DNA from: Isoetes taiwanensis
Taxonomy: Eukaryota; Streptophyta; Lycopodiopsida; Isoetales; Isoetaceae
Direction of reading: 5' to 3'
DNA length: 64,000 nt
Assembly (NCBI GenBank): GCA_021234155.1
Contig: JAJEKV010000014.1
Coordinates: 5,781,563-5,845,562 of the forward strand
Positions within the stretch are counted from its first letter, which is position 1, and each line of letters starts with the position of its first letter. Below, piece by piece: positions 412 to 56,000 of this stretch. The translations under genes and the position numbers were made by a program. A model generated the notes under the pieces. That model saw nothing but the letters and a program-made list of their open reading frames with translations. It did not search any database and had not been told where the DNA came from.

Positions 412-921
412 TATCATGAACCTAAAAAAAACAAGGAATATACTTGGAAAATATACAAGAAATACGGAGGAAATATGCCAAGATCGGCGAAGAATCTAAT
501 ATATGAACAAGAATCAAGAGTACAATAGCCCGAAGGCAAGCAGGAACACGAGACAGATGCCTAGATGGCTCAAGACTAGCGTTGAACCGGAATGCTTTGA
601 CAAGAACGAGGTGCCTCCTTATATATCTAGGCCAAAGGTCAGGATTGTGCCGCTCCAATGGATGAGATCACGCCAAATGTCACACATGCATGTAGGTTCT
701 CGAATATTTTCTAGAACATCCTAGAAATAGCCCCGCATATAAGAAAGACGTGAGAAAATGTCTTCAATAAGTATTGGTAGCACACTTGGCAAAGGTATGT
801 GACCTGCAATTAAAAGGTTGCAAATTCAAACTCTATCTTGTGCTTGCATCCATGTGATGATTATCTTTTGTACATACGAGTATAATGTTCATATGATACG
901 AATATCTGTATAGTCGTCACA
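412..921 (-). repeat. 3' LTR of the chromovirus
   Basis: Direct repeat of 5401-5907, with the same start (tatcatgaacc versus tgtcatgaacc) and the same end (gtcgtcaca). On the minus strand it begins TGTGACGAC. The last pol codons and stop (…RRKGMV*) run into its first bases. Confidence 0.9.
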
Positions 922-1964: not shown

Positions 1965-2792
1965 GGCCTGGGAGGATAGAAGCTCGACAATGAAATCAAC
2001 TAAAATGCTCTTTCGAGGACTGACTGGAACTAATAAAACCTGAAGCAGGCCATGTGGATGGTGCTTGGGAGCTTTTGCACGACAAAAAATATCACATGAG
2101 CGTACAAAAGTCTCAACAGTGCGGCGGAGACCTGGCCACCAATAATCTCGAGCAACGAGTTCCAGAGTCTTGGCAATTCCAAAATGGCCGGCGAGAGGAG
2201 AATCATGACAGGACTGCAGGACTTGAAGTCAGGGAACACCATCCAGAATGTACAGAAGTCCATCACGAAACAGAAGTCCATTTTGAACTTCAAGATGATC
2301 ATAGTCCAGCCGCATTTACTGGGAAGACGATGCTGAGCTAGGATGTGAAAATACATCCTGCACCAAAGGATAAAAAAGAAGAGACGCTCGAACAGACTCC
2401 AACAAGGATGTACCATGAGGCCTCTCGAACAAGGTGATGGCCATAAGATGGAAATGACCAGGTCCTAGAATAACCTGTGATTATTGATCAAATGCTGGCT
2501 CCCCTGCCTTAGGTTCAAAATAGGATCTGCGAGAAAGAGCATCTGGTTTTCCCTGAAGTGTGCCAGGCCGAAATTTGATGACGAAATCAAAATGGAATAG
2601 CACATGTGTATGCCATCGAGCCTAACGACGACTAAGACCTTGAGCAGACTGAAAATATTCCAGGTTGCGATGGTTACACAGTCACCTTATGAGTGAATCT
2701 TCAAGAAAACGTCGTCGACCCTGAAAAGAGTCAACGATCGCTAAAAGTTTCTTATTGTAAATAGGATAGCTGATCTCAGTAGCTTGGAACTT

Positions 2793-3755
2793 TTAAGAAT
2801 GATAGGCGATCAGGTGCAGCTCATGATCATCCCCCTCTTGTGACAAGATGCTGCCAAGAGCAAAATCTGATGCATCAGCTTCGAGAATATAGGAACGAGA
2901 AGGATCCGGGTGTGCAAGAACAGGTACTGCTGTAAAGGCATGCTTCAAAGTGATGAATGCTGATTCTGCTTCAATATTCCACTCAAAAGGGACATCCTTC
3001 CTAGTGAGACGTATCAAAGGCAAGACAGTCTCCGAATAGTTCTTGATGTAGCAGCGATAAAAATTGGCAAACCCCAAGAAGCACTGTACATTTGTAATTG
3101 AGGAAGGTGTTTTCCAATCAAGAACTATGCTGACCTTTTCTAGATCCATGGAAACACCCTGAGATGTGATGTAATAACCAAGAAACTCAACATTATCCTG
3201 CTCGAATTGACACTTCTCTAGCTTGGCATAAAGTTCACATTCCTGCAACTTTTGAAGGACCTTCTGAACACATTCTTCATGCTCTGCCAAAGTCTTCGAA
3301 TAAACCAGGATATCATCCAGATAAATAATAACAAAAAGATCCAAAAACTCCCAAAAAACATCGTTAGCCATGTATTGAAAGACCACCGGAGCATTGGTAA
3401 GGCAAAAGACATGAAGGTATACTCGAAATGACCATACCGAGATCGAAAGGTTGTCTTCCACTCATCACCTTCCCTGATCCGGATAAGATTATAGGCACCT
3501 TGAAGATCGATTTTGATAAAGCATCGTGCACCTTATAATTGCTCAAGTAAACTCTGAAATCAGAGGGAGAGGATATCGATTATACACAATGATCTTGTTG
3601 AGGTCGCGATAACCCACAACCAATCGCAAAGAACCATCCTTCTTGGAAACAAAGAAGATAGCAGCTCTTGTGGGTGGCTGAGAATGTCGGATAAATCCAG
3701 TCGCAAGATTCTCCTCGATATAGGTCCGCAAAGTCTCTAATTCTGTTGGCGACAA
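2793..3755 (-). pseudogene. Reverse transcriptase and RNase H (chromovirus pol)
   Basis: Minus strand, in two main frames. 3543-3755 carries the RT N-terminal fingers ('KKDGSLRLVVGYRDLNK' with 'NRYPLPLI'). 2793-3461 carries the palm with the catalytic '[12 protein letters not shown]' and 'KCQFEQDNVEFLGYYIT', followed by the connection region and the start of RNase H ('LEADASDFALGSILSQ'). A short gap with shifted frame between the two (about 3,460-3,545) marks a break. RT copies element RNA into DNA; RNase H removes the RNA strand. The rest of RNase H and the integrase N-terminus (1,965-2,790) are present only as broken frames. Confidence 0.9.
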
Positions 3756-25822: not shown

Positions 25823-26401
25823 CAGTATTGAAATCAGAAAACCTTCTAGAGGTTTCTTGGCGGAGCTCTGGTGGCGCCGCCTGAGCTCCGAGTAGGTTGT
25901 TTACTGTTTTGAACAAAAGCATAAAAAACCAGAAATTTCGTCCTTGTGGACGTTTACGATTTCCCCTTTCTTGCATGATAGCAGATCTGGTCAATATATG
26001 CAGATTTGTTCTCTCAAAGGTCAATAAGAAAGCAACGGGTTTCACTCTGCCATGTTCTTGCTCTGTATCTTGATTTGGATTATCTGTGATGCATTCCACA
26101 AAAAATGCATGGCTACATTTGGGTAATAACATAATTCTGTTCCTCTTCTTAAAACTCTCAGAGACACACAGAGCATTTAGACATCTTTTATTATGCTCTC
26201 ACCTTTTTTAAATCTATCCACTAAAGTTTGTTCAATTAGACTCTGCGACAGTCCTCAAAATACTGGAATGTATCCATCGCCAAATTTTGCTACATCTAGC
26301 TTTATTAGGATTTGTTATGGCTATGGTTGTGTTGGCAGATAGTGTTATTTTTGTTGTCGGCCCAAATTTCCTATCCGAAAAAAAAAAATTGAAACTTTTT
26401 G

Positions 26402-27884
26402 TGTGACGTTCCAGCACAGTATACGGTCCCAGGACGTATACTGTACTGCCTCGTCACGCGTACACGCCGTCCCAATCGACGTGTACGTCGACGTGTACCC
26501 AAGCAAGGGCGCCCTAGGGGGCAACTTGCAAGGGTGCGCGCACTAGCAATGTGCGCACTTTTAGACCTTTAACCCATTAAAGGTAGACCAAGGGTCATGG
26601 AAACCCTAAACCTAACTGATAGCCTACATAAGGCACCAAACCCTAACTTTCCCTTTTCGCCGTTCCAAGCTCCGATTCGCGCGCCCAAGGAGTCAATTCC
26701 AACTCCCACAATCTGCCCGTGCACCCCAGCTTGTCAGATCGTCCTTCAGACCACATCTTAGAGACACGGACGCCTTCGGATCGAGAGGAGTGAACCAGGG
26801 ATCAGGTATTTGGTCGATCGAATAGCATAAACCTCACTCCAGCCTTCGAATCAGTAGGTTTAGCCTATTAAATCACCACTAGCAGCCAAGTAGATCCCGA
26901 GATTGACCTAACTAAAGAACCTAACTCTATGAGATAGATTAGTTCTTTATTATTTATTATGTTGATATGATGGACGGATGGATTCTGTGAACTCATTGTA
27001 TTGGGAAGGGGGGGTAGAGACTTAAAGCTTAGTAGATGATGCTCCTAGTTAGTCCCTCTTAGTGCATTACTAGATTTCGGCCTGTGCACAAGAACCCCAC
27101 CTGGTTGTGGGTGAAGGGGCGGACCGGCTTAGAATGAGGTTAGGTGTTCGACCCTTGACCGATCCCTCGGTGTGTAAGGCCCCCTTTGGGGATCAGGAGT
27201 GACTAGGTCTAATGGCTTGCCACCGAGTGTGGGTAAGGCATGGGCTCGACACCCGTGGGGTGGAGTTCACCTTCAGTGGGTTAAGTCGAATAAGGGCGGT
27301 GGCCCTCTAGTCACCTGGGGTCAGCATGTAGATCTCGGAGGGAGTGATCCCTACCGCCCCATCGGGACTGGGGAGATGTAACCGGGAATAGCCCCTTTGG
27401 CTATGCACCCCGTGGGCTTCTGATCGAGTCCTAACACTTTTCAACCTACTCTGCAAAGTGTGCACAGGAGGGGCGGATGGAGTGGACAACCCAAAGCCAT
27501 GTTCTTATGCCAGCCCAATCCATTGTCATGATTCATGTCTTGACCAACGGGGAGACCCAAGCTAGTCGGGTCCTTCCCCGAGTCCGAGCCTTGGGTAGGA
27601 ACTTCCATGTATTGTGCTGATCTTTGTCTATGCAGATGTTGATGTGCCACCACCCGAGGTGGATATATGATGTTATGTTCTTGGCGTGTATGTTTACGCT
27701 TCCGCAGCCTAGGTAGGCCACGAGGGAGGCGGGGTAAAATGACCCCTTCACTCTTCCCACTTTGTGGACTCTAGGCGGTCACGGTGATATGTGGAGGGCC
27801 CCAGATCAGTGTGGGAGCTGGTGCGGGGGATGAACTCCTGTTTGTATATGGTGCGGGCATCGTATACGAGTAGGGGACGTCACA
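26402..27884 (+). repeat. 5' LTR of the H3-like retrotransposon
   Basis: 1,483 bp, matching 36,070-37,535 over its length. It begins TGTGACGTTC and ends GGGGACGTCACA. It should contain the promoter; no unmistakable TATA box was chosen. Confidence 0.95.
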
Positions 27885-27885
27885 G

Positions 27886-27903
27886 TGGTATCAGAGCAAT
27901 GTT
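27886..27903 (+). other. Primer binding site (initiator Met tRNA)
   Basis: 'tggtatcagagc' is the reverse complement of the 3' end of plant initiator methionine tRNA, one base after the 5' LTR. This is the standard primer site of plant LTR retrotransposons. Confidence 0.92.
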
Positions 27904-28084
27904 CTTGGAGACCAAGAGCAAAGCACTGACCATGCTCCCAGTAGTACTAACTTGATAGGATCCTCAAACCTCGAAAAGTGGAAAAATGTTTTCTCATTTT
28001 TAGTTTGTGCTAAGCTAGTAACAGTTAAGTGAATTAGAACTTAATAAGTGAATTAAGACTAAAAATAATAAGTGAATTAAGACT

Positions 28085-28294
28085 AAAAAGAATGAGCCAA
28101 AATCTTTTCAGGCAAGGTGAACCTTTTCAGGCAAGGTGGTCTCACAGCTCGCGCCTGGTCAAAGATAAAAAGAATGAGCCAAAACCTTTTCAGGCAAGGT
28201 CGTCTCACAGCTCGCGCCTGGTCAAAGAACTGCACTTTAGTTTGTGAGCAGGGCGCAAGCTGTGAGTTTTTGAGCAGGGCGCAAGCTGTGAGAC
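28085..28294 (+). repeat. Repeat block and stem-loop 1 upstream of the H3-like ORF
   Basis: 'ccttttcaggcaaggt' occurs three times (28,092-28,137 twice, 28,184-28,200). 'gtctcacagctcgcgcctgg' occurs at 28,139 and 28,202. Its partner 'gagcagggcgcaagctgtga' occurs at 28,247 and 28,272. Arm and partner are about 22-bp imperfect reverse complements, so 28,202-28,294 can form a stem-loop with alternative closing strands. Confidence 0.85.
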
Positions 28295-28423
28295 ATTGAT
28301 CCAAAACCTCTTGAAAAGTCATAAAATTTAAAAAAGTAACTTGGTGATTCGAATTTTAGCCTAGAAATTAGCTACATTAGTCTAGTTTTTTTCAATCTAT
28401 TCTAACCTCATCTTAAAAGGATT

Positions 28424-28505
28424 CCCGCGGTAGCGAGAATTGAACCTCCCACCCACAGGGTTGAACCCCTCTAAACCCCCCCGGTGCCAACCACTGAGGG
28501 CGGGC
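28424..28505 (-). other. tRNA-like sequence, antisense to the H3-like ORF
   Basis: On the minus strand: 5' CCCGC, 'CTCAGTGGTTGGCACC' (A-box-like), an intervening G-rich segment, 'GAGGTTCAATTCTCGC' (B-box-like), and 3' GCGGG that can pair with the 5' end. Stems are imperfect and there is no clear anticodon arm, so it is a tRNA-derived SINE head or tRNA relic rather than a working tRNA gene. It lies about 150 bp before the H3-like start codon. Confidence 0.4.
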
Positions 28506-28651
28506 ATCGTTTGTGTTTGAATTATAATTCTTAATTAGATTTAAGCTTTAATAATGTTAGATAATATTAATGGCTAAGCCTTAGACTTAGAACCAAGACC
28601 CTTAAGCTAGATAGAGACAGCATCTTGATAGACACCAGGGCTCCGATCGAC

Positions 28652-28900
28652 ATGATGCGCACCAAACAGACCGCTCGACTTTCTCGACAAGGCGAAACAG
28701 CCAGAGGCCAAGGAGACCGAAGGAAACAAGAAGAGGAGAGGGCAGAACGAGAGCGGGAGGCCAAGGTTCAAGAAGCAGCAGAGCAGAAGCTGGTCCAACA
28801 TTTTGAAGACTCAACAGCCTGCACTGTTCATGCGAAGCGAGTAACCCTCATGAGGAAGGACATGCAATTAGCTAATTTAACTAAGGGAGATCCCCAGTAG
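28652..28900 (+). CDS. Histone H3-like ORF inside the LTR retrotransposon
   Basis: 82 codons, ATG at 28,652 (a second ATG follows at 28,655), TAG at 28,898. Aligned without gaps to the H3 tail, the start reads MMRTKQTARLSRQGETARGQ. Identities are at R2, T3, K4, Q5, T6, A7, R8, S10, G13, R17 and Q19; A1 is Met, K9 is Leu, K14 is Glu, K18 is Gly. The C-terminal ~44 residues align without gaps to H3 about 92-135: 'VQEAAEQKLVQHFED' against the end of helix alpha2, then 'CTVHAKRVTLMRKDMQLA' against loop 2 and helix alpha3. H3 residues about 21-91 (alphaN, alpha1, loop 1, early alpha2) are replaced by a short Arg/Glu-rich segment. The frame is open upstream to a TAA at 28,568 but without another ATG. 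It occupies the gag position, about 770 bp after the 5' LTR. It is not a normal histone gene. Possible role: mimic of the H3 tail; this is inference. Resemblance is strong, function unknown. Confidence 0.85.
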   Translation: MMRTKQTARLSRQGETARGQGDRRKQEEERAEREREAKVQEAAEQKLVQHFEDSTACTVHAKRVTLMRKDMQLANLTKGDPQ

Positions 28901-29046
28901 ATATGTTGTAAATAATCAATACTTTTGTTAATACATGATAATTTTGAGTAGTTTATGTATCAAATCTTGCTTAAATTAGGACGAGTTAGCAAGTAGTAGT
29001 TTTTATTTTAGTAAAATAGGATATTCTCAGACCAAAAAAGTGTGAT

Positions 29047-29113
29047 GTCTCACAGCTCGCGCCTTGTCAAGAAACTAAAGTTTAGTTTTTGAACGAGGCG
29101 CAACCTGTGAGAC
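29047..29113 (+). repeat. Stem-loop 2 downstream of the H3-like ORF
   Basis: 'gtctcacagctcgcgccttg' … 'aactaaagtttagtt' … 'cgaggcgcaacctgtgagac'. The outer arms pair over about 20 bp with a few mismatches, and the inner 'aactaaa/tttagtt' pairs as well, giving a nearly continuous 67-nt hairpin. Confidence 0.88.
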
Positions 29114-29260
29114 CTTCATACCTAGACCATGTCCAAACTAGACCAAAACACCTCCAAATTGACCAAGTAAGGGGTCCATTCTGCCTAACTCGAGGAGACT
29201 AGCATGAATAGACCCTTAGATCACCCAAATTGGACAAGTTTAACCCAATTTACAGCCAAT

Positions 29261-29327
29261 GTCTCACAGCTCGCGCCTGGTCAAAGAACTAAACTTTAGT
29301 TTTTGAGCAGGGCGCAACCTGTGAGAC
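29261..29327 (+). repeat. Stem-loop 3
   Basis: The same hairpin as stem-loop 2, 67 nt, with arms 'gtctcacagctcgcgcctgg' and 'gagcagggcgcaacctgtga', and the same inner 'aactaaa/tttagtt' pairing. Confidence 0.88.
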
Positions 29328-29329
29328 CT

Positions 29330-32300
29330 CCAAACTTTGAACTTCCATAACTTGAGCTACAGAGCTCCAAATCGCCTGAAAATTGTTGCAATAGGACCAT
29401 TAGACAGCCTAGAATCCATTTATGACCTCAAATTAGGCTAGAAATGTCAAACCCCAGCTCAAAATGACCAAAATTGCTCAAACCCTTGAATTGTTTTTCC
29501 AAACTGTGGTTTGTTTGTGAATAGAAGCATACCCCATTAGTAGCTCGCAAGTATTGCTCTCAGCTCGAAGCTGATGCCTTACTCCTAGATAGAAGTGCCC
29601 AAGAACGCCCCTTTGTTATAGTCATCTAGACCTCAGCGTACCAACCCAAGTCCAACTGTTGGTACATCACCTCGGGTCATGCCAAAAGCATAAACCTTAA
29701 CCTAATTCTGTGTCCTCCTAATAGAGTTTGACTTATATAGCCGCCACATTGACACTCCCTATTGCCAGGATACCTAGAAAGGAGCTAGAGTCTAGAGCTG
29801 CCCAAGTCACCTCATGTGTAGAGATTGGACTCCCCTAAACCAACTTTGCTAGGACCTTAGAGTATGCCTCAAACATCATGGAGGTCTTGCAAAACAACCC
29901 TCATGTCATGCCATACCACACATCCTAATGTCCATTGACTTGGAGATTATAGATATGTCTTCAGTAATGCTGCTCAAGCCATCTTGTTTGCATATAGAGC
30001 CAAAAATGTTGTAGGAGAGCCCTTCAAGTAGGCCCTTAGAATCTAGAATATACGAGCGTTGCTTCGAAGTACAGGACCAGAGCCACAGACGAGCTAGAGG
30101 CGCAACTTCTTGAAGACATCGAGGTCCCAGCCGATGTACAGACAGATAAGGAGAGGAGACCCAAAAGGCAGAGCCAAGAGAGGGAAGCACAACGACAAAC
30201 ACCTCAACCGACAAACGAGTAGAACGGGACACCACCAGCCTATCATCAATCTTCATCAAATGGGAAGAATAATTGGTAACCAACGGCATCAAGAATTTTC
30301 TAGATGTCAACCTCCCGGCTACCACGTCCACGAGCTCACATCAGGAAGAGGATCTCGACGCCTTCACCAACTCGACGCCCACGAGTTTCAAATGGGAGAA
30401 TGCAAAGCAGCAAAATACATGTGCACGAACACGTTAGACATCGATCTTGGCGTTAGCATCCACGAGCTAGGGCCGAGGGCATAATCTTCCGTCGAGGAGA
30501 GAAGTCATGGCGACGAGGCGTATAGGAACCGGAGAGAAGACCACCCGACCTTGCAGCCCGGCAGCTCAAGCGAATGTCGCGCGCCAACAAAAGGAGCGAC
30601 CAAGCTAGGCAACCACAAGCACCTAAGGCTGACCAGGACGAGCTTCCAGCTCCCTTGCACCAGCAGGAGAACTTTCATCGGTTCCAAAAAGTAAGAGACC
30701 ATGAGGAGGAGGAGACGACCTAGCCAGCAGATACAAATCACGCAAAGGCGACTAGAAGGAGCCATGGTAGGGGCAATGGAGAAGACCACACTTCCAGGCA
30801 CAGGAGAGGCACCTCGGAATGAAGCAAAGCCCAAGCAACAGGAGTCGCACTCAGAAATCCAACCTGCGGAGGAATGCCAATGCACGCCTCACAGACCACG
30901 ATCTTAGAGCTTGAAGATATTCAAGGATGCCCAACTGCAACAGCTAGGTGATCTTACTCAAGCGATCAACGGCACCGCACATCGGCAACCCTGCAACGAA
31001 ACACTGCATGTAGGGACGTTGAGCGGTCACCGCATTCCTCACGACGAATATACACATTAAAGAGGAGCATCTTTCTCAAGGGATCACATCGACGAACACT
31101 CTTCGCAACTGGCGTGACGAGCTCGGATCAGACATAAAGCTCAACAATAGTAGCGGCATCTCAAAGGAATCCTGGAGTCAACCAGAACAAAGAAGATGCA
31201 GCAAAACCAAAGGGTCAAACGCGATAGGAGGAGGGGAAACCCTAAAGGACTATAAACAATTAAGTAGATCTTCGTAGTTGTTTTGAAAAAGTGGATGAAT
31301 TAAAATCCCAATGTAAATGCGTATATGTCTATTGTATATCTCGGGTGCTCACAGATATAGTGGAGAAACATGAGTTTAAAGTCATGTTTTACGGATTTAG
31401 CGCTTAGATCAGGAAGCTCCTTCACTTCGACTACCAAAGGAGGAAGCAAGGAAGCACAACTATAGCCCAAGATCAAAATGGAAGAGCAAGTACGAGAGAG
31501 AAACGACCAGAGCCCAAGCAAACCTTCGACTCCAAACACTTCGGGAAGTGCCCTCAAATAGAACACTGCTCGTCCACCCAATGTCAGAATAAGAGACAAC
31601 ACCGGTCATGTCAAGATCATCAGTGCGGCACCAGGACATCGTCAGGGCGCAACACTACATCTTGTGGCAGTGGCAACATTTGATGAACTTATGACACGAG
31701 TGGCCTCAACAATAGAAGGAGGAAAGACCCGACATCAACGAGCCAACTAAGAAGGCAACATCTCAACGGCCATAATTCCACCTTGTGGTAATATAGGGTG
31801 ATGCGCCATGACACAGGTATTAGATGGAGAGGCACTTACGAAAGGCACCGCGACGAGGAGATATGCCTTCAACAACCAAGTGATGGCTTCGTCAGATACT
31901 CCTACCAGTAATTAGAAGAGAAGAAGCCGATCATATCTCCGACATGTGGGACATCAAACGCCCAAGGTAGAAGCATTTGACACCTTAACGACAAGGATAG
32001 CAACTGAAGCACCTTCGGCAAAAAAGAGAGTTCAAGATAATAGCAAGGCTATTCAACAACAAGAGTATACCTAAGGAAGGTACTTCTTCAACTCAAGGGT
32101 CAAGCTGCGCAGATATAAGGATCCATCATCCCGACGATATAGCCAGCAGGGAGGAGAGCCATGATGCTTTACTTGACAGAGAGACCGACATGCATAGAGG
32201 GACAAAGGTCAGGAACTGAAAGCCGGAGAAGTACTAGCAACCGACTTCTTCCACGAGCTCCCTAAAGGCAACAGGAGGATCAAAACTGACAAGCACAATC

Positions 32301-35300
32301 AAAGCCACCGGAAGGTATCTCAAGACAAGAAGACGGCATAGCACTGTGGAACGTGACAACGTCCAAGCCAGGTGATCGAGGGGATCAAACAAGGAAGTTT
32401 GGCAGCTCGATGGAGAAGCAACTAGGCGAGGCGAGCCGATGACTTGCACGCGGACTTGCATGCAACTTGGTGGACCCAAGGAGGGACGATTCAAAGAACA
32501 ACTGCAGAAGAGAACAACTCCAGAAGAGTATAGCCAAAGGAATCGCGCACAGCCTCAAGAGACGCCTTCAAATAGCTTCAAGCATCATGAAGGGAAGAAC
32601 AATTACCGCCCGAGAACAGGATCAGGAAGCAGACTGAAATGTCGAAGCATCAACGACCAGCACGCCTTTAATTAGAATGTGATGCAAAGCACGTTGTGCC
32701 ATAGCCGACAAACACCAGAGGGCCCAAGTATATCAACAAGTTACCCCGGAGTACGAGCTGACGTACAAATAGGAGGATATATATCGTCAACACCATTGCA
32801 CCGGGAGGAACACTGATGACATTGCCAAGGAGTAGGTGTGCAACTCGAAGGGATGCACAAGGGGGACCTAATAGCTCTAGTAGTAATTGTAATTATATGA
32901 GCTATATGCTTTGCATACATAGTTCCCTTGTTATTCCTTCCCTCCCATAGCGTAACAGATCAAAGGAAGAGATGTCAGGCAATTTGCAGGGGTGAAGCAA
33001 TCAACATCCTCAACACTCTTCGGGCAATACGATAACGAGAAGAGGACTCGACGTATGAGACGTAGATGGAGTCGAAGAAACAATATCGGATACAGAGTCG
33101 TCCTTTAGCTGCCAAGACAAAGAGTTCAAGATGAAAGATCTTCTTCAACGGCGCCACCTTCAGGCTTTTGAAAAGTGGCACGGAAGATTTCAAGTGACCA
33201 ACTACGCCATCAAAGCCAGTAGCAATGAGAGGCTTCTAACGAACAAAGTCAACCTCTACATCAAAGAGGATCCACCGTCAAGGAGACTGAAGTATCGAGC
33301 GACTCGGAAGAACGTTACCTTGCTATTTCAAGCAGGCAACGAGTGGATGAGCTTCTAGCAAGCTCAAGCATCTAAGGCCATGGGGCCTAGTAGGTTAAAT
33401 GTAGGGATGGTAACATCCATATTGGGATTAGAAGACATTGTTAGACATTCTCGCCGAAAGGATTGCCCCAATATTGAGCTAAGCGTCAAGTATTGGGAAG
33501 GAAACGCATAGGAGTGACTAAACTTATACACGACTGTTAACAGACATCCAACATATTGAAACCACTTGGTGAGATTGATCACCTCGCTAAGAAGGAATCA
33601 TTACTAGGATAATTGTTGACCATGTATAAATCTAGTACCTCCAAAAGAATAATCCAACCGAAAGAAAAGAAGTAATCTAACAAGTCCGGCCAACTTGTTA
33701 CGATGGCATCAATTCGATTGGTAGGAATATTCCAAGAGCTAAATAACTAAGAAAGGGGGAATCTCTAGAATATAAAAGAATAATACATGTAAGGTACATC
33801 TAAAATAAGAATTATAGTAATCAAATAGTCTTTTGAGACAAAAGGAATTGTCATAATGACAAAATCGTGTGGTTTAGAATCGTTCTAACTAAGTAGGTAA
33901 CCCGTAACTATATTGAAATAAATAATAACATAAAATGTGCATCCATCTTAGATGGTTAAATATGTTAGCCAAGGTTAGTAAATTAATGCGCTAACTAAGA
34001 AGCGTATAACCTCTTAAGGGGAGAGAATAGATATGATGTTGTGTACAACGTCATTGAAGGGGTGCATGACCATTTTCTTTTCGAAGAAAGTGGGAGGGCT
34101 CAATCTTATGATTGAACGTACTTGCATCGAATTGACCGACCTGTAGAATAGAGTTCACTCCGGCAAGGGCCGAAGCGAATAGAGCGTAAGATAGATAGAT
34201 ACCGTAGTGCTCAGGAGGCCTTCAACGTGCGAGACCGACGTGGCAGCTAACTACACCAATGAAGTGGAGCAAAAGTATGGGAGCAATGCAACGACCAAGT
34301 CATCTCCAAATTACGCGACGCCGGCTCAATGGGTGGATGCATTCTAGCCTAGGTAAGGCGTGCGCATGCATTATAAGCTTTAATGTGTCTTGTAGATAAG
34401 TTAAATATAGATCCTAATAATTGCATGGAATTTACTGTACGTATATGTATCATACGGGAATAAGTTAAATAACAACGATAATGTGAGGTAGCATGTTAAT
34501 TAATCCTTCGCAAGGATGCAATTCCTTCCAAGGATAGCCATATGACCTCGGGGTCCTTATAAATATAGATAGAAAATAGAATTCAGATATACTTAAGTGC
34601 ATCTTAGGGATATACTTCCAAGGGTAATGCAGGACCCAAGGAAGAGAATAAGAAGCACATCTAATTCTTGTGTATGATAATTGAAACCTTCTCTATGTAA
34701 CAATAGGTCTAGAATCAGGGTTATTGTTTAAATAATCGCGATCTAAAAGTCGTTAAATATTGCAAAGCTTAGAGCGAATATAATTGTACTATCGGAAGTA
34801 ATGTATCCGATACTATGATAATGTTAATTCTTAAACATTTTAGGGTAATTATGTTAATCACATGCATTAAAGGAGCCAGCAAAAATCGGCTCAGGCATGT
34901 CGATTTGTGTTTAGATTAGTTTCATGTGTAGTTAAGATTAATCTACGCATGCAACCTATGCTTGGTATGGGTTGCATGCGTTGTTACCGATGACGAGACC
35001 ACTACGGTGATCTCTAGGACGTGGTGTAATGTCAATGTAGGCATGACCGCGGTTCCGCTTGGAAAGTCTACTTCTGTCCCACGGAAGTAGACGACCTCGA
35101 GAGAAAGGAGGTCATTGAGGAATGCATTGATAGGAAAAGCACCTCTAGCCCCATATATGCTTTGATAGGAGGAATCGGCCTTCACGCCCCCATATCACGG
35201 GGAAGGACCTACCCTCCACGTTGGGCAACTAAAGGTGTAGGCATGAGCGGCATACTGGGCATTATAGGGCATTTGTCTCCTCTACCCGCGATGGAAGAAT

Positions 35301-35450
35301 CATCCTCTTCCTACGGAGATTAGCCATGCATTCATGTAGATAGGTGGGGTGGTCACCATATAACCAAAATTTTATTAATAATTAAAATGGTATTAACGTA
35401 GTGTGTCCTAATCGAGCCAATAGAGCTCCGGGAGGGCAAGGAGGTCGAAC
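29330..35450 (+). other. Long interior of the retrotransposon, no intact coding region
   Basis: 30,080-33,360 is purine-rich with short plus-strand frames that look like decayed hydrophilic (Gag-like?) protein, for example 'ERRPKRQSQEREAQRQTP' near 30,140 and a Glu/Arg/Gln-rich frame at 30,701-30,907. They are interrupted every 60-130 codons. 33,400-35,450 is A/T-rich with no coding look. I searched by eye for RT (YxDD), protease (D-[ST]-G-A), zinc knuckle and integrase motifs on both strands and found none. Confidence 0.55.
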
Positions 35451-35454
35451 TCAT

Positions 35455-35975
35455 GAAGACTTGCAACACAAATTTTGTTATAATGTGTTGCAAGAGATGA
35501 AGAGTACCTTAGAAGTGTAAATTTTGTATGAAATTGATAAACTTTGATAAACTTAAATGTTGTATTAAGTAAGGTTAATAATTACCTTGCGTGGATTAAG
35601 TTATGAAGTCATAAGTTAATTGGATAATGAAATAGTACAGTAATGTCTTAAACATTACCTTAGAGTAATTCTAATAATTAAGATAGTAAGTATGTAATTA
35701 TAGATATTGTAAAATTAATCTGAGGATTTTAAGGGTGAAGAGACTTGCAACACAAATTTTGTTGGAATGTGTTGCAAGGAATGAAGAGTACCTTAAATAA
35801 TAATTGTATATGAAAGTGTTAAATTGTGATAAACTAAATGTTGTGATAACGGAGACTAATAAGTACCTCGTTTTAATAGAAGTTATAAATTGTTAAGTTA
35901 TTTGATAATGTAATGATAGTGTTTAGAAATATTACCTTAAGGTAATCCTAGTAATTATGTAAGTATAATAGTAAT
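35455..35975 (+). repeat. Imperfect direct repeat (~240-285 bp units) with hairpins
   Basis: Units at about 35,455-35,700 and 35,738-35,975 share 'cttgcaacacaaattttgtt', 'atgaagagtacctta', 'gataaacttaaatgttgt' and 'attacctta.ggtaat'. Each starts with a perfect 11-bp stem cttgcaacaca/tgtgttgcaag (35,460-35,494 and 35,744-35,778). The placement just before the 3' LTR suggests a structural RNA element of the retrotransposon. Confidence 0.82.
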
Positions 35976-36054
35976 ACATTGGATGCATCAAGTTGATTGC
36001 AGGTTAGGAAGATCCCAAGGTGGGGAGACCCACGATGCTGCGGACAACATCATT

Positions 36055-36069
36055 TCAAGGTGGGGAGAA
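36055..36069 (+). other. Polypurine tract of the H3-like retrotransposon
   Basis: 'caaggtggggagaa' immediately before the 3' LTR. A near copy 'ccaaggtggggagac' lies 42 bp upstream, ending about 36,028. Confidence 0.9.
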
Positions 36070-37535
36070 TGTGACGTTCAAAGACGATATATCTGGTCCC
36101 GGGGCATTATATTGCATGCTCCTAAAATCCAGCGTATTACCGCAGATCCCAATCGATGTCGCCGGCGTGTATTACCAAGCAAGAAACCCTAGGGGCAACT
36201 TGCAAGTGGCGCGAGTCAGCATCGCGCACTTTTGTGACCTTTAACCCATTAAAGGTAGACCAGGGTCATGGAAACCCTAAACCTAGCCCGATAGCCTACA
36301 TAAGGCACCAAACCCTAACTTTCCCTTTTTCGTGGATTCAGGGAGCTCCGGGTTCGCCCAAGGAGTCAATTCCAACTCCCACAATGCGCCGTGCACCCGG
36401 CTTGTCGGATCGTCCTTCAGACCACATCTTAGAGACGGACCCGGGATCGAGAGGAGGAACCGAGGATCGGTATTTGGTCGTCCGAATAGCATAAACCCTC
36501 ACTCCAGCCTTGAATCATTAGGTTTAGCCTATTAAATCACCCCTAGCAGCCAAGTAGATCCAGAGATTGACCTAACTAAAGAACCTAACTCTATGAGATA
36601 GATTAGTTCTTTATTATTTATTATGTTGATATGATGGGCCGGATGGATTACGTGAACTCATTGTATTGGGAAGGGGGTAGAGACTTAAAGCTTAGTAGAT
36701 GATGCTCCTAGTTAGTCCCTCTTAGTGCATTACTAGATTTCGGCAGGTGCACAAGAACCCCACCCGGTTGTGGGTGAAGGGGCCAGGCCCGGCTTAGAAT
36801 GAGGTTAGGTGTTCGACCCTTGGACCGATCCCTCGGGTGTGTAAGGGCAGGGGGGAGGAGTGACTAGGTCTAATGGCTTGCCACCGAGTGTGGGTAAGGC
36901 ATGGGCTCGACACCGTGGGGTGGAGTTCACCTTCCAATGGGTTAAGTCGAATAAGGGCGGTGGCCCTCTAGTCACCTGGGTCAGCATGTAGATCTCGGAG
37001 GGGAGTGATCCCCACCGCCCCATCGGGGACCGGGGAGATGTAACCGAGGAATAGCCCTTTGGCTATGCAATGGTCTGGCTCGCCGTCCTAACACTTTTCA
37101 ACCTACTCGCAAAGTGTGCAATGGGAGGGGCGGATGGAGTGGACAACCCAAAGCCATGTTCTTATGCCCGCCCCAATCCATTGTCATGATTCATGTCTTG
37201 AACTCACGGGAGACCCAAGCTAGTCGGTCCTTCCTCGAGTCCGAGCCTTGGGTAGGAACTTCCATGTATTGTCTTGATCTTTGTCTATGCAGATGTTGAT
37301 GTACCACCCCCGAGGTGGATATATGATGTTATGTTACCGACGTGTATGTTTACGCTTAGCTAGCCTAGGTAGGCCCCGAGGGAGGGGGTAAAATGACCCC
37401 TTCACTCTTCCCTTGTGGACTCTAGGCGGTCCGCGTTGATATGTGGAGGGCCCTGTATCAGTGTGGAGCTGGTGCGGGGGATGAACTCCTGTTTGTATAT
37501 GGTGCGGGCATCGTATACGAGTAGGGGACGTCACA
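36070..37535 (+). repeat. 3' LTR of the H3-like retrotransposon
   Basis: 1,466 bp, same ends as the 5' LTR, with scattered substitutions and short indels relative to it. Followed by the TTTTG target duplication. Confidence 0.95.
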
Positions 37536-37552
37536 TTTTGTTTTAGTGTGTA

Positions 37553-46400: not shown

Positions 46401-49239
46401 ACAATGAGTGTCGACAAAATAACTGATACTAATGGAGCTATAGCTGATACCCAGAAATACCTTTTGTAGTTTTTCCCCTACATTTTAAAAATAGCAAGAA
46501 TAAGAATACGGTCATATCGTACTGAAGAACACATCTGCTAAATGAAATATCCGGGTAAGAGGACTAACAATGTACTTTGCAGTAAGAAGGAGAAGTAGGA
46601 AAGAAAGTCCAATCACAATAGTTTGCCAGTTCCACTGCACAATAGTTAAAACCATTCCCATAAATTATGCATGCAAGAGCACAAGAAGGAAAGAGCTGTG
46701 CTCTTTGTAGCCCATTACCTGATGAGTATGTGTAAAGACAGATCCAAGGACAGAAACAATATCAGTCTTCGTGGTGAAATTTTTTATTCCAAGAAGCCCT
46801 TTGAGTTGTTGGAGGCCAATGGTAATAGCAGCCCCACTAATAAATCCGACAACAGCCGCATGTGACAGGAAATCAATGACAAACCCAAGCCTGATATGTC
46901 AGGGCATAAATGAGAGACAGTTAGCCTAGCAAACTCTCTCGACATAATCCCATAGATATGAAGGGAACATAGATTCGCACCTCAGAAGTCCAAGCGCTGC
47001 TTGGAAAATGCCACAAAAAAATGTTGAGGTTATTGCAAGTCGTAAATACAATGCTTCATCCTTCTTAGGATCAACCTCCTTGCTAAGCAACTCTCCCAAT
47101 AATAATGAGACAACTGCAACAGGTCCAATGGCTATATGTCTGGAACTTCCAAACACAGCATACAAGATGGGAGGAACAAAGCTTGTGTCTACAACACATA
47201 ACGTAATATAATTAACAACGATTTCATCACAAGATCTGTATTGGCACATTAAACAAACCATAACTGAACAAGTAAGATTACCAAAATTGAATGGAGCCCT
47301 TTTTGTCATCTTAATTTTTTAATGCCAATGTTGCTGTCAAGTGATATCAGTACATATATTAGTGGTGACGAGTTCGAAAACCTTAGAATGAAGCTTCAGA
47401 AAGCTTGAAGCTCTCAGTTTAGACAATAAAGCACATTGCTCAATTGAATGCGCATAACACTCTACTTTCATATTCTTCGTAGTATGAGCGTGTAGTTCTT
47501 TCGCTGCCATATTAACTTTATGCATATCGCGATCGCGTTAAAAGCAGTGGGGAAAAATTACAATTGGATCTAAATATGGGTTTATGTGATTAAAAGGCTA
47601 CAGCCCGAAACTCCTGCGGAAATTTAGATAGGTGTACTATAATTCGTTGATATTACGAAGGGAATAAACTTGATGACCCATTTCTTCGATTAATACAACT
47701 TAGAAGCAAAACCACCCATACTTAAAGAAAAGTGAAGTGCATTCGTTTTAGTGACGCCCGATTTTTTTGCACTTTTCTTGGATTCTTGGAAAGCCTAGCC
47801 TACTTATTGGGGAATAATATAGTAATAATAGTGGGGAGAAGAAATAAGCAATGTTGATGCAGTGCAGATGGTGCCAATGTGGCATGATGTAAAAATTGCT
47901 TCAATGACTGAGAGAGGTAGAGGGACAGAAGTTGGGGAGTGGGCACTCTCACCTTTAAGAGAAAGCAAGAGATTTTTGTTTACCCTAACTAGAATTAATG
48001 ACATTTCTCATTGCAAATTTGTTGTTAAAGCACAATATCGGACTCTACACTCTATTTAGATCTCTTCACACCTTTTCATGAGAGAGAGAGAGAGAGAGAG
48101 AGAATATCATACTCTACACTCTATTTATATCTCTTTACACCTTTTCATGAGGGAGGGAGGGAGGGAGGGGAGTGTGTGGGGAGAGAGAGAGAGAGAAAGA
48201 GAGAATACATAGTCCATAGTTCCCCTTAAGATTGGCAAGCTTCGCATATCCAATATCCTACAACATAAACAAATAAATAAATGAATGACCATTTGCACAA
48301 TGGTGCCATATAGAGATCCATGAAAAAAAAAAAAAAAAAAAAAAGGTACAATATAGAATGCCCTTTATTTTAATCCACTTGCTATGCACTCCTAGTTGAA
48401 TTTTGAAAGTGCACAACAGGTTTGCAAGATACAAGGCCATTTCCCCCTTAGGAAGGGAAAAGGGCCCAAATACGTCCATTGAGTAAGGCCCTTCAAACAA
48501 CATCAAGAACCAAGAAAAGGATTTGGCCAGGTTTTTTTTACAACCATGCTTACGTTTCATCTTACCTGACATCCCCATTCATGGGATCAACATGCTCTGC
48601 ACTGCGGACTTCATTGGACTACTCTACCACTAGACCGCCGGACATCATTGGACTACTATACCACTAGATAGGTGGCTTAAACTGAGCACATTCCATAAAG
48701 AAGTGTTTTCATATAAATATAATCTAATAAAACTATATAGAAAAGAATGTAGCTATTGAAATGAGGTGGGTTAGACCATTGACAAGGGATAAAGGAACTA
48801 TTACTATTGTGTGACAAACAAACGAAAAACGATATTTTAATGGAATCTGAATTTCATGCAAATAGAGACAAAAAGATAGAACAGGACATACCTGAGGAAT
48901 GCACAAACTGGCAATGGTAAGTCCGGCAATAATATCATGATGGATCTCCCGGATCTTGTAGCTGCGAACCCATTCAAGGATTGGAAAAATGTAAGCGAGA
49001 GCGAGCCAAGCCCGGGTAAGGGGGGGCTGATTTTTCAGGTGCCGGAGAGGGCTGTCGGAAAACAGAGCCTCATTTACCGCATCCTTCAATCCTTTGTAAA
49101 ACGGAGCCTGCCGCGGCATCTTCACCTTGTATTTTTGAAATTCAACATCATTCTCATCATCTGACACATTCGAAACCCGTCGCCCATCTGTTGAATTCCG
49201 ACGATCCAACGAAATCCGAGGTCCTTCAACAGAACCCAT
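43453..49239 (-). CDS. SULTR: Plant sulfate transporter (SLC26/SulP family), gene A
   Basis: Proton-coupled sulfate uptake carrier of a cell membrane. Coding exons (minus, 5' to 3'): 49239-48892, 48257-48209, 47188-46981, 46890-46719, 46634-46569, 46477-46364, 45722-45606, 44882-44756, 44594-44308, 44229-44039, 43936-43857, 43753-43677, 43605-43453; together 662 codons plus stop, the usual length. All introns are GT-AG and phases agree. The transmembrane domain (about residues 90-490) has '[11 protein letters not shown]', '[10 protein letters not shown]', '[20 protein letters not shown]', '[15 protein letters not shown]' and '[19 protein letters not shown]'. The cytosolic STAS domain (about 500-650) has '[15 protein letters not shown]' with the conserved Thr, and '[11 protein letters not shown]'. 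'[12 protein letters not shown]' favours the SULTR1/2 side. The exon 9 donor is read as gtaggt at 44,307, because the gtaac 4 bp on would break the frame. Exon 10 uses gtctgc. It lies downstream of gene B with 509 bp between. Confidence 0.96.
48034..48208. repeat. Polypurine microsatellite in intron 2 of gene A
   Basis: (ag)n at 48,081-48,103 and a ggga/ga tract at 48,150-48,203, with a ~70-bp duplication ('actctacactctattta', 'caccttttcatgag') spanning them. On the transcribed strand it is a TC-rich tract starting 5 bases after the exon 2 donor. Confidence 0.9.
48323..48344 (+). repeat. Poly(A) run in intron 1 of gene A
   Basis: 22 consecutive A. It could be the tail of a small retroposon, but no body is recognisable. 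Confidence 0.7.
48590..48672 (-). repeat. Duplicated tRNA A-box-like segment in intron 1 of gene A
   Basis: On the minus strand 'tctagtggtatagtagtcca' is followed by 'atgatgtccggcgg' and then 'tctagtggtagagtagtcca'. The words resemble the 5' part of a tRNA (TAGTGGTAGAG). No convincing B box follows. Confidence 0.35.
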
Positions 49240-49748
49240 TTCTTCCTTTGCCTCCCAAACTCTCTCGCCTTGGAAATTTTCGCTCGTTTATTTGAAGAAT
49301 TTTGCATGTTCTTTGTATCTGGTCCCTTCTTAGACCTCCATTTTCTTCCACATGCATTTAATATTTTTCTTCCTTTTGTGTTGACTTCTCTTTTGTTTTG
49401 GCTTAGATGAGGATAGTCAAGCTGTTGCTTCCTTCTAAATAATGCATTAATATGTCAATGGTCCAGCGAGAGTCCATTCTAGTGTGCCAAGTGTAGAGGA
49501 AACAATGTGAAACCTACTTGCATGACCTATAGAATATCTACACTCTAGTACAAAATTCTTCTCTAATCCATTGACAACTACACCCAATAATGTCAATCCA
49601 GGACCAAAATCAACTATTTCCAAAACCAACATATACAACATTTCCCCTACCATATATCTGTAGGGTTTTATTTGAACAAGCTTTCAGACATTTACATATA
49701 AGGCTTTCTTGGCCTTTTTCCTTTATTTCTATCAATCTTGTGTCTAGT

Positions 49749-52700: not shown

Positions 52701-55003
52701 CGCCCATAAATCCAACAATAGCCGCATGTGACAGGAAGTCAATGACAAATCCAAGCCTGAAAAGTCGACAAGTGTTTACCATATTATGAATTCCAAGAAG
52801 TACTTTTGGTATTATAAAGTGAGAACTTTACCTTAGCAAACCAAGCCCTGTTTGAAAAATACCCGTGAAGAATGTTGTTGTGAGTGCAAGTCTTAGATAC
52901 AACAACTCTTGCTTAGGATTGACTTCTTTGCTAAGCATCTCTCCTAATAGAATTGAGACGACTGCAACAGGTCCAATCGCTATATGTCTAGAGCTTCCAA
53001 ATATGGCATACATAATTGGAGGCACAAAGCTTGTGTCTAATAGACACATCATAAATAATTGTTAGATACAATGAATAAAGTAATTAAAAACTATGTTTAT
53101 CAACTCGGGAATAGAAAATGCTTCTTAAGGATGCAAATAGATGTTCCTTTTGAATCACAAATTTTACTTGAACTTTGGTCTAATATCTTACTAGAATTCA
53201 ATGACATCTCATGGGCTACATAATAGTGCTATGAATTATATAGCTCTATTACGTTCCATTGTGTTATGTCATGTTTTCTTATGTCATGCCACACGCACGC
53301 ACGCATAGATGGGGGGAGGGAGGGAGGGAGAGAGAGAGAGATTACATAGTCCATAGTTTGGCTTCAAATGTGCCAACTTTGCATAACCAATGTCCTGCAA
53401 TCAATAAAGTTTGATGAGATTCAACACACAAAACACATATCAGTAATACTAGCATTTTATGCCTTGTGATTTTCAAGGGACAAATATGTATCAATGCAAC
53501 AGTCAGTCGTTGAGTAAAGCTGGAAAGATAGAGGAAGTAATAGTCTAGCTTGAACTTGCTTTTCTACTATGGCATCATGTATGGCGGTATGGAAACTGGG
53601 GAGCGGATTCCAAGGGGTCCTACGACTGGCGGGAGCCGGGAGCGGGTCCTGAAATCAGCGACCCAGTTCTAGGCCGCCACAACATGTTAACTGGATTGCA
53701 GACGATTTGCCTTCGGATTACTTGCTGAGCGAAATCAGCATGTCGTTTTCCATTCCGAGGCAGAACGAGCGAGCCAGTTTCCATACTATAGTGTAGTATG
53801 CTGCTTTTAACCGGCAGTTCCTCGACTACTTTAGATCTTAGCCGTTAGATTAAGATTAATTATTAGCCGTAACAGCTCATATTCAGCCTGTTTATCTTGA
53901 TAAACCATCTGCTTGCCTGTTTATCTTGATAAACCGTCCACGAAGCATCTCAGCTCTCAAAAACTCAGCGAAGACAAAGCTTTGGCAGGCCGTCTTGAAG
54001 GCTTTGCTTAAATCGGAGCTCTGGAGCTCTGGCCGGCCGTCTTGGAGCTCTAGCCTTGCAATCTTGAAGGCTTCTTAAATCAGAGCTTAAATCGTGCTTG
54101 AATCGCTGCTTTAATCTTAAATCGCTGCTTGAATCGCGCTTAAATCGCTGCTTAAATCTTAAATCGCACCCAAATCGGAGCTCCGGGATAGCATTGGAAA
54201 AGGCATCCAGCGATAGCCGATACAGATTTTCTTTGTTGCTTGCTGCTAAAGCAGTCTCGGACCCTGCCGGTTAAAGGGGTCAAACCCCCTTTCTCGCCCA
54301 TTACGGCAAAAATAAATGGGCTCGCCCCTCCGGGCTCGCCCATTTATTTGCCGTAATGGGCTCTAAAGGGGGTTTAACCCCTTCATAAGTAGCCAAGTAC
54401 TAGGTGTTTAAGTGATATTTTCCCTTCTCTCCACCCCCCGGACGAATTGATTATATTTGTAGAATTGAGGAGTAGTTTGAGAGGGCATTCCACATTAGAA
54501 CTTGAGAGGCCATGCTATTCGAAGCGATGTAATTGGCACAAAGCCACATCAATGTTATGCGTATGATTTTGCTTCTATTGTAGGAAGTCAAAGTCTAATC
54601 TAGAAAAATGAATGTCGGCTAAAATGTGGACGTCTAAACAAATGCAAAGAAAATGGGAAAACGACAAAAAAGGGAACAAGCGACTGACCTGAGGAATGCA
54701 TAAACTGGCTATGGTCAATCCGGCAATAATATCGTGATGAATCTCTCGGATTTTGTAGTTTTTGACCCATGAAATTATGGGAAAGATGTAGTTGAGAGTG
54801 ATCCAAGCTTTTGCAGAAGGCGTCTGGCCCTTAAACTGGCGAGGAGGAGACAGAGCGCCCTGCACTGCATGCTTCACCTCTTTGAAGAACGGACGCTGTT
54901 CAGGAATGCCCACTCTATATCTGGCCCCCCCGGTCTGATTCTGGAGCTCAACATCTGCATCTTCTGCCGATGAAACCCGCCGGACATCCGAGCTCGAACC
55001 CAT
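49749..55003 (-). CDS. SULTR: Plant sulfate transporter (SLC26/SulP family), gene B
   Basis: Tandem paralogue of gene A with the same 13-exon plan. Exons (minus, 5' to 3'): 55003-54689, 53394-53346, 53036-52832, 52756-52585, 52510-52445, 52372-52259, 51417-51301, 51110-50984, 50907-50621, 50542-50352, 50216-50146, 50039-49963, 49886-49749; 642 codons plus stop. Start chosen at the MGS Met, which matches gene A; an in-frame Met 14 codons upstream (55,045) is less likely. Motifs: '[11 protein letters not shown]', '[20 protein letters not shown]', '[17 protein letters not shown]', '[15 protein letters not shown]', and STAS '[15 protein letters not shown]'. It differs from A by a shorter N-terminus (105 versus 116 residues in exon 1), one residue less in exon 3 and three less in the STAS loop of exon 11. 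Exon 7 uses a weak gttgtc donor. An AATAAA lies about 22 bp after the stop (49,722-49,727). Intron 1 contains a foldback hairpin and intron 6 a SINE remnant. It appears functional. Confidence 0.96.
51650..51750 (+). mobile_element. SINE-like remnant in intron 6 of gene B
   Basis: 'tagcccattgtatatgtccc', 'atggcctattggtctccgtg', 'gacgttaaaaaat' and a ttcta-type tail match the element at 20.9-21.15 kb. It is absent from the same intron of gene A, so it inserted after the gene duplication or was lost from A. Confidence 0.65.
53293..53340. repeat. Polypurine microsatellite in intron 2 of gene B
   Basis: (acgc)n, then g6, (gagg)n and (ga)n, ending 5 bases from the exon 2 donor at 53,345. This is the same position as the tract in gene A. 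Confidence 0.9.
53860..54200. repeat. Short repeats in intron 1 of gene B
   Basis: 'gcctgtttatcttgataaac' occurs twice (about 53,887 and 53,914). 'aatcgctgcttaaatctt'-type words repeat about six times between 54,070 and 54,180, along with 'ggagctct' words. Confidence 0.7.
54274..54383. mobile_element. 110-bp foldback (MITE-like) hairpin in intron 1 of gene B
   Basis: Left arm 'aaggggtcaaaccccc', then 'gcccattacggcaaaaat' and 'aaatgggc'. The right arm is its reverse complement with few mismatches, ending 'tttaacccctt'. The arms are about 47 bp and the loop about 16 bp (cgcccctccgggct). It has the same overall design as 25,302-25,420 but unrelated sequence. Confidence 0.8.
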
Positions 55004-56000
55004 TTCCTTTTCTTCGATCTTATATCCTCTGCATATACAAGACAAATTAGTTGCTGTTCAATACTCGAACCATGCTAGCTTTATCAATTCAATTCAATTT
55101 AATTTATCTTGAAGATTCACCTTCGCAATATCCCTCCACACTTTGTCGCCTTTGCACAAATGTCCACACTTCCATTTGATATTTTTTAGTATGTATTTAT
55201 ACATGTACTCTCTCGTGGACTTTAGAAATGCTCTTTTTCTCTCGTCAGATCCACTGCACCTTGCCCCATTGTCTTGATTCCCTGTTATCCCTATCCAGTT
55301 GGCTCACTCTCATGTATCTTGCCCGTTTTTCGTCTACATACTTTGGAGTTGACCTCATGCCCCTCATGTCATATACACGTTCTATACTCGAGAAGCGTTG
55401 AGGTGTAGCATTCTACTTGTCATGTTGGCTCATTGACTTCATTACTAGATGTAACATAGCATTATATTACACAATTGTACATGGCAAAAACATTATTTAA
55501 TAGCATTTCAGTTGTGAAGTAGGTTCTACTTCACCACAAGAAACAAACTTTTGCTTTTTATACTCTTCACTTAACTTTAAGCATAGCTTCCTATATCTGA
55601 CCCGATACTTGTTTTTATACATCTATCATTTATAGAATATTACTTTCTTCCTTGTACCTGACCTTGATACTTGTCTTTATACATCTAATTTATAGAATAT
55701 TACTTTCCTTCTTTAGATGTACAAGGATAGAATCTATGGCAACGACGACTTTCCTTCTATGGATGCACGATCTATAATATCATACAATGGTAATATCTAT
55801 GACTAATCATCTCAAGGATGTGTTGGCTTTCGCCATAAAGCAAAACCCTTGTGGTGGAATATTATGAAATATATAATGCGGTAATTTGACATTTTAAGCA
55901 AGTATATGACGTGTTTTCTTCTTTCTCAAGTCTAATTTAGCAAGTTCTGACGGGTCTGCCCAGGAGGTACAAGTTAATAATTGACTCAATGAAGCAATCC
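55004..56000. other. 5' flank of gene B
   Basis: Presumed promoter and upstream DNA of sulfate transporter B. A 60-bp near-duplication ('tgatacttgtctttatacat' type) lies at 55,590-55,710. No specific promoter site is claimed. Confidence 0.4.

What the first reader, a model, noticed from the sequence alone, without database searches (positions are those of the whole stretch)
28652..28900. Histone H3-like ORF encoded by an LTR retrotransposon
The ORF matches the H3 N-terminal tail (TKQTAR and spacing to Q19) and, separately, the H3 C-terminus (QEAAE…LV..FED…C..HAKRVT.M.KD.QLA) without gaps in either block. It sits in the gag position of an element with intact LTRs, PBS, PPT and target duplication. 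Two conserved blocks in the correct order make chance very unlikely. A retroelement carrying a histone tail could use it to recruit or decoy chromatin readers, guide integration, or resist silencing.
Basis: partly seen in the sequence, partly recalled or inferred. Interest (0 to 1): 0.96.

Follow-up and report, generated by a model that had tools for sequence, protein, structure and literature searches.

The report
Histone H3 remnant inside a retrotransposon
A plant-type jumping element with no recognisable protein genes of its own carries a short reading frame that matches both ends of histone H3; this looks like a captured and reworked host gene, and nothing yet shows that it does anything.

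Summary
The ORF at 28652-28900 is derived from histone H3: Pfam Histone 3.3e-08, best solved H3 2e-11, H3 against the window 1e-11. Both ends are in register with H3, start codon to residue 20 and residue 92 to stop codon, around a net in-frame loss of 54 codons. It lies inside a structurally complete LTR retrotransposon (26402-37535). Pfam scans of the interior in six frames find no other domain, so the element looks gag/pol-less (LARD-like).

The divergence is unlike plain decay: 15 of 29 changed codons need two or more base changes (neutral maximum 13 in 5000 simulations), yet the frame is open. Past constraint is likely, in a host H3 variant or in the element; two other tests of constraint were not significant. 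Copy number and dN/dS are untested because the host genome search did not complete. Most of the histone fold is missing, and the tail has lost A1 and K9, which argues against a reader decoy. Best reading: a transduced, reworked H3 gene, probably inert in this old copy.

The parts
26397..26401 (.). left target-site duplication TTTTG
   Evidence: identical to 37536-37540; T-rich, so only moderately informative
26402..27884 (+). 5' LTR, TGTGACG...CGTCACA, 1483 bp
   Evidence: alignment to 3' LTR
27886..27898 (+). primer binding site TGGTATCAGAGCA
   Evidence: sequence; assignment to initiator tRNA-Met is recalled
28200..28300 (+). hairpin-forming repeat upstream of the ORF
   Evidence: fold z -6.79, repeat family
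28652..28900 (+). H3-derived ORF, 82 aa; open stop-to-stop from 28571
28652..28711 (+). N block, colinear with H3 start codon to Q19, 12/20 identical
28712..28762 (+). 17-codon Glu/Arg-rich middle, no significant H3 match, in place of 71 H3 codons
28763..28900 (+). C block, colinear with the last 45 residues of H3 and its stop codon, 24/45 identical
29045..29112 (+). hairpin-forming repeat downstream of the ORF
   Evidence: z -7.85
29259..29326 (+). second downstream hairpin-forming repeat
   Evidence: z -6.10
36057..36069 (+). polypurine tract AAGGTGGGGAGAA
36070..37535 (+). 3' LTR, 1466 bp
37536..37540 (.). right target-site duplication TTTTG

Best explanation
A non-autonomous (LARD-like) LTR retrotransposon carries a transduced histone H3 coding sequence. 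Shown: the start-to-Q19 end and the last-45-residues-to-stop end are both in register with H3, around a net 54-codon in-frame loss with a short Glu/Arg-rich replacement; the ORF lies between matching LTRs with PBS, PPT and TSD; no gag or pol domain is found in the interior by Pfam. Inferred: capture was by template switching onto H3 mRNA during reverse transcription or by DNA recombination (plant H3 genes are often intronless, recalled, so the two would look alike). The sequence then, or beforehand as a host H3 variant, diverged under some constraint, because it keeps an open frame and unchanged motifs next to multiply-hit codons. In this copy it is most likely an inert relic. If translated it would give a small, charged, probably helical protein that cannot form a normal H3-H4 histone fold, since alpha-1, loop 1 and half of alpha-2 are gone. 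The first two rivals below are versions of this capture that differ in where the constraint acted; the odds given are not exclusive.
For: H3 homology. Register of both ends and 12/20 plus 24/45 identity. Element anatomy. No other Pfam domain at E 0.1 in six frames. Constraint before insertion: 15 of 29 changed codons need two or more changes, neutral mean 4.6, maximum 13 of 5000; neutral drift from H3 to this identity leaves no stop and keeps the ATG in 5% of 20,000 runs, and separately is free of any indel with probability about 2e-6 at the LTRs' own indel:substitution ratio. No direct repeat of 7 or more bases flanks the ORF. LTR elements capturing host genes are common: 672, 1343 and 424 in rice, sorghum and maize (PMC3726574, passages); maize Bs1 (PMC13317346, passages).
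Against: One copy only, so that the ORF belongs to the element family is not shown; it could be a private capture or a fragment that entered this copy after it inserted. Retained residues are not significantly concentrated at sites invariant among H3, CENP-A and Cse4 (17 kept/9 lost against 7 kept/9 lost, Fisher p 0.15), and the run-clustering test is not significant (p 0.097). The excess of multiply-hit codons could also come from short replaced tracts instead of selection. The starting H3 protein was recalled and its codons random, not taken from the host; the simulations treat the 17-codon middle as given and count any indel as loss.
Confidence: 0.75

Rival explanations
1. Element-encoded working mini-histone: the family kept the H3 ends under selection, and the product acts on H3-H4 chaperones, the H3-H3' interface or the H3K9 methylation machinery to blunt silencing.
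For: Open frame despite strong divergence. Retained C110, H113, K115, R116, T118, D123, Q125, L126, in the region of the H3-H3' four-helix bundle; PMC5626479 names 109, 110, 126 and 130 as its hydrophobic cluster (passages). Tail keeps K4/R8 but has K9 to L. Survival of the frame since insertion by luck alone is about 0.02-0.07 (stop and indel odds multiplied, assuming independence).
Against: L109 is Ala and I130 is Thr, so half of that four-residue cluster is lost. The single-sequence fold shows one long helix with no histone fold (pTM 0.42; weak evidence). A1 is lost. 37 upstream ATGs. Two constraint tests not significant. No expression data and no second copy.
Confidence: 0.12
2. The constraint predates capture: the host has or had a divergent, internally deleted H3-variant gene, and the element (or a retrocopy landing in it) only carries a dead copy.
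For: Most H3 divergence is older than this insertion: substitutions since insertion are about 6% per site (half of K2P 0.123), against at least 46 changes over 195 sites from H3.
Against: No such H3 variant is known to me (recall only), and the H3 core is normally almost invariant (recalled). No host genome could be searched.
Confidence: 0.35
3. Chance or composition-driven resemblance of a Glu/Lys/Arg-rich ORF to H3.
For: The middle is low-complexity and charged; residues 10-20 of the tail alone are only p 0.009, and the N-terminal stretch alone is not significant in the PDB search.
Against: 0 of 200,000 shuffles reach either block score; next best in the window 23 against 51 and -5 against 117; Pfam above its curated cut-off.
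Confidence: 0.01
4. Secondary insertion: an H3 retrocopy landed inside an existing element and is not carried by its family.
For: Only this copy was available. Target duplications shorter than 7 bases were not tested.
Against: No direct repeat of 7 to 14 bases is shared between 28501-28652 and 28901-29045, and no long A run follows the stop.
Confidence: 0.15

Closest known systems
Bs1 and other plant LTR retrotransposons with transduced host gene segments (PMC13317346, passages; PMC3726574, passages)
   Same: LTR element carrying coding sequence of a host gene between its LTRs; in Bs1 not full length
   Different: Cargo is histone H3; the word 'histone' does not occur in the main text of either paper
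LARD-type non-autonomous LTR elements (recalled class)
   Same: Long interior (8.2 kb) with complete LTRs, PBS and PPT and no detected gag/pol domain
   Different: Contains one recognisable protein-derived ORF, from H3
Single viral H3 histones of large DNA viruses (PMC9145170, passages)
   Same: A mobile or viral genome encoding an H3-like protein without other histones
   Different: Those generally keep high similarity to eukaryotic H3 in the histone fold; this one lacks alpha-1, loop 1 and half of alpha-2
Bracovirus H4 CpBV-H4 (PMC5423620, search listing and abstract start)
   Same: Histone gene in a viral context, reported to act through its tail after joining host nucleosomes
   Different: H4, in a parasitoid wasp virus
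H3K9M-type oncohistones and EZHIP-like histone mimics (recalled; EZHIP in the listing only)
   Same: Tail in which a silencing lysine is replaced by an aliphatic residue (here K9L)
   Different: K9L is not an established inhibitor to my knowledge; no expression or binding shown

Membership tests
Histone H3 | significant sequence homology to H3 | tested here: met
   Pfam 3.3e-08, PDB 2e-11, tblastn 1e-11
Histone H3 | complete histone fold (alpha-1, L1, alpha-2, L2, alpha-3) | tested here: not met
   no significant H3 match for codons 21-91 in the ORF or elsewhere in the window; single-sequence model is one long helix (weak). So it is H3-derived, not an H3 histone
Histone H3 | N-terminal tail with A1, K4, K9, K14, K18 | tested here: not met
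   only K4 of these five kept
CENH3/CENP-A | closer to CENP-A or Cse4 than to H3 in the C-terminal block | tested here: inconclusive
   24/42 to H3, 23/42 to human CENP-A, 20/42 to yeast Cse4: H3 and CENP-A are not separable; no plant CENH3 was compared, and loop 1 is absent
LTR retrotransposon | paired LTRs, PBS, PPT, target-site duplication | tested here: met
Autonomous LTR retrotransposon | gag and pol domains | tested here: not met
   Pfam at E 0.1, 3 forward and 3 reverse frames of 27886-36130, stops as X: only Histone
Transduced-gene LTR element (Bs1-like) | host coding sequence between the LTRs | tested here: met
Transduced-gene LTR element (Bs1-like) | cargo shared by several copies of the family | not tested
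   The genome search unanswered

The most novel reading that the evidence does not exclude
A retrotransposon family encodes a selected mini-H3 (H3 tail with K9 changed to Leu, plus the alpha-2/alpha-3 end of H3) that interferes with H3 deposition or H3K9 methylation and so protects the element from silencing: an anti-silencing histone mimic made from the histone itself.
Probability: 0.08. Interest if true: 0.92.

Novelty: new variant of a known kind. Interest (0 to 1): 0.55.

Why it matters
Histones are among the most conserved proteins known, and plant retrotransposons are silenced through H3 modification (both recalled). An H3 gene carried by such an element that lost the silencing residue K9 and most of the fold while keeping an open frame would, if conserved across copies, be a direct case of a transposon turning the silencing substrate into its own tool. 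Even as a relic it is an unusual captured gene: the five literature searches that bear on it, and one on gene capture in general, showed no title or abstract start about an LTR element carrying H3. Searches listed only part of their hits, and the open-licence library lacks most subscription journals.

Tried and rejected
Chance or composition: rejected by shuffles and whole-window controls. Hidden H3 middle in another frame (frameshift or assembly error): no further significant H3 piece by sensitive tblastn, best other hit E 0.60. CENH3 origin: not separable from H3 with the sequences compared. Degenerate gag/pol elsewhere in the interior: no Pfam hit at E 0.1, though badly broken copies could be missed. 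Retrocopy with its own target duplication of 7 or more bases: none seen.

Led nowhere: a protein search of 5.8 billion sequences found nothing, but ordinary H3 should share enough five-residue words and length to be a candidate, so that collection apparently holds no eukaryotic H3 and the miss is uninformative (my inference). Plasmid, viral and prokaryote-genome scans found nothing, as expected for plant-type DNA. The host genome search did not complete. The species was not identified. The single-sequence structure model is uninformative.

Results against my reading: retained residues are not significantly enriched at family-invariant sites (p 0.15), and clustering is not significant (p 0.097), both; half of the four-residue H3-H3' hydrophobic cluster is lost (residues named); the N-terminal stretch alone is not significant in the PDB search.

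Full report
Observation. The ORF at 28652-28900 encodes the 82 residues reported. It matches Pfam Histone at 3.3e-08, 34.3 bits against a cut-off of 26.4, and solved H3 chains at 2e-11, with the strong stretch at residues 30-80 and a weak one at residues 1-20 (5.8 bits, i-Evalue 210, not significant by itself). A recalled plant-type H3 searched against the whole window gives one significant hit, 1e-11; the next is 0.60. Anchored at the start codon, the first 20 residues score 51 against H3 1-20 (maximum of 200,000 shuffles 43; next best of 1110 open ATG-anchored 20-mers in the window 23). Anchored at the stop codon, the last 45 residues score 117 against the H3 end (shuffle maximum 30; next best of 638 is -5). 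Counting the initiator Met, codons 1-20 and 92-136 of H3 and its stop codon are in register, so the ORF is H3 with a net loss of 54 codons and a 17-codon Glu/Arg-rich replacement (28712-28762). Identity is 12/20 and 24/45. Residues 10-20 taken alone give p 0.009. Single residues named below (K9, C110 and so on) use the usual H3 numbering without Met.

Element. LTRs lie at 26402-27884 and 36070-37535, begin TGTGACG and end CGTCACA, and are flanked by TTTTG on both sides, with PBS TGGTATCAGAGCA at 27886 and PPT AAGGTGGGGAGAA ending at 36069. LTR comparison: 1281 identities, 86 transitions, 77 transversions, 35 indel events, K2P 0.123, with 52 mismatches in the first 150 alignment columns. The element is old, or has a recombinant or fast-changing U3 end. 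Six-frame Pfam scans of 27886-36130 with stops as X, at E 0.1, found the Histone match and nothing else. The element is therefore probably non-autonomous, LARD-like (class name recalled). The ORF is 5'-proximal, 767 bases downstream of the 5' LTR, but no gag was found for it to stand in for.

History. From the ORF back to H3 at least 46 base changes over 195 sites are needed, in 29 codons. Unconstrained drift to this identity leaves no stop and keeps the ATG in about 5% of 20,000 runs, and is free of any indel with probability about 2e-6 at the LTRs' indel:substitution ratio (in-frame indels are counted as loss, and the 17-codon middle is taken as given). Since insertion only about 6% per site has changed (half of K2P), so most divergence is older. 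Some earlier constraint is the simplest reading, in a host H3-variant gene or in the element; short replaced tracts could also raise the multi-hit count. Two tests did not support histone-type constraint: enrichment of retained residues at sites invariant among H3, CENP-A and Cse4 (p 0.15) and clustering of retained residues (p 0.097). After insertion, the chance of no stop is 0.46-0.60 and of no indel 0.04-0.12, together about 0.02-0.07 if independent: suggestive at most.

What it could do. The retained C block spans the end of alpha-2, loop 2 and alpha-3 of H3 (structural labels recalled). Of the four hydrophobic positions named for the H3-H3 interface in PMC5626479 (passages), 110 and 126 are kept and 109 and 130 are changed to Ala and Thr. 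Without alpha-1, loop 1 and the first half of alpha-2 a normal H3-H4 pair is not expected. A single-sequence model gives one long helix, residues 6-77, mean pLDDT 82.9, pTM 0.42, which is weak evidence. In the tail, K4 and R8 are kept; A1, K9, K14 and K18 are M, L, E and G. Loss of the Ala1 end argues against PHD readers: an N-terminally acetylated H3 peptide did not bind KDM5A PHD1 at the concentrations used (PMC6327041, passages). K9L recalls K-to-M oncohistones, but K-to-L is not an established inhibitor (recalled). Translation would have to pass 37 upstream ATGs from an assumed start at 26660, 7 of them after the PBS.

Known relatives. LTR elements with captured host genes are well known: 672 in rice, 1343 in sorghum, 424 in maize (PMC3726574, passages) and Bs1 (PMC13317346, passages); neither main text contains 'histone'. 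A review of viral histones, including lone H3 genes of viruses, has no word beginning 'retro' (PMC9145170, passages). Five literature searches on H3 or CENH3 with retroelements and one on gene capture showed no title or abstract start about an LTR element carrying H3; some searches listed only part of their hits and the library is incomplete. Three further searches were on other points.

Verdict. It is most likely a captured, reworked H3 coding sequence in an LTR element without detectable gag/pol, inert in this copy. A selected anti-silencing mini-H3 is not excluded, but it needs the copy comparison that could not be made here: the host genome search did not complete.

Noticed in passing
window 28200-28300, 29045-29112, 29259-29326: Three copies of a palindromic repeat (TCTCACAGCTCGCGCC...GGCGCAA.CTGTGAGA) bracket the H3 ORF and fold into strong hairpins (z -6.10 to -7.85); possibly tiny MITE-like units or siRNA sources.
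   Followed up: partly
window about 26402-26551 vs 36070-36219: The first 150 alignment columns of the two LTRs carry 52 of the 163 substitutions; suggests recombination between elements or a fast-changing U3 end.
   Followed up: no
window 35457-35688 and 35741-35965: A direct repeat of about 230 bases, 75% identical, lies shortly before the 3' LTR.
   Followed up: no
window 917-3461 (minus strand): Broken chromovirus-type Ty3 element in three ORFs: chromodomain, integrase zinc-binding domain, reverse transcriptase and RNase H by Pfam; a possible kind of autonomous helper, not tested.
   Followed up: partly
window 48733-49287 and 54575-55057 (minus strand): Two similar but diverged ORFs about 6 kb apart that look like first exons of plant sulfate transporters (recalled resemblance; no Pfam match at 1e-3), perhaps a tandem gene pair.
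   Followed up: partly
window 62929-63567 (minus strand): ORF with a zf-RVT domain (1.9e-13), as in plant LINE elements (recalled).
   Followed up: no
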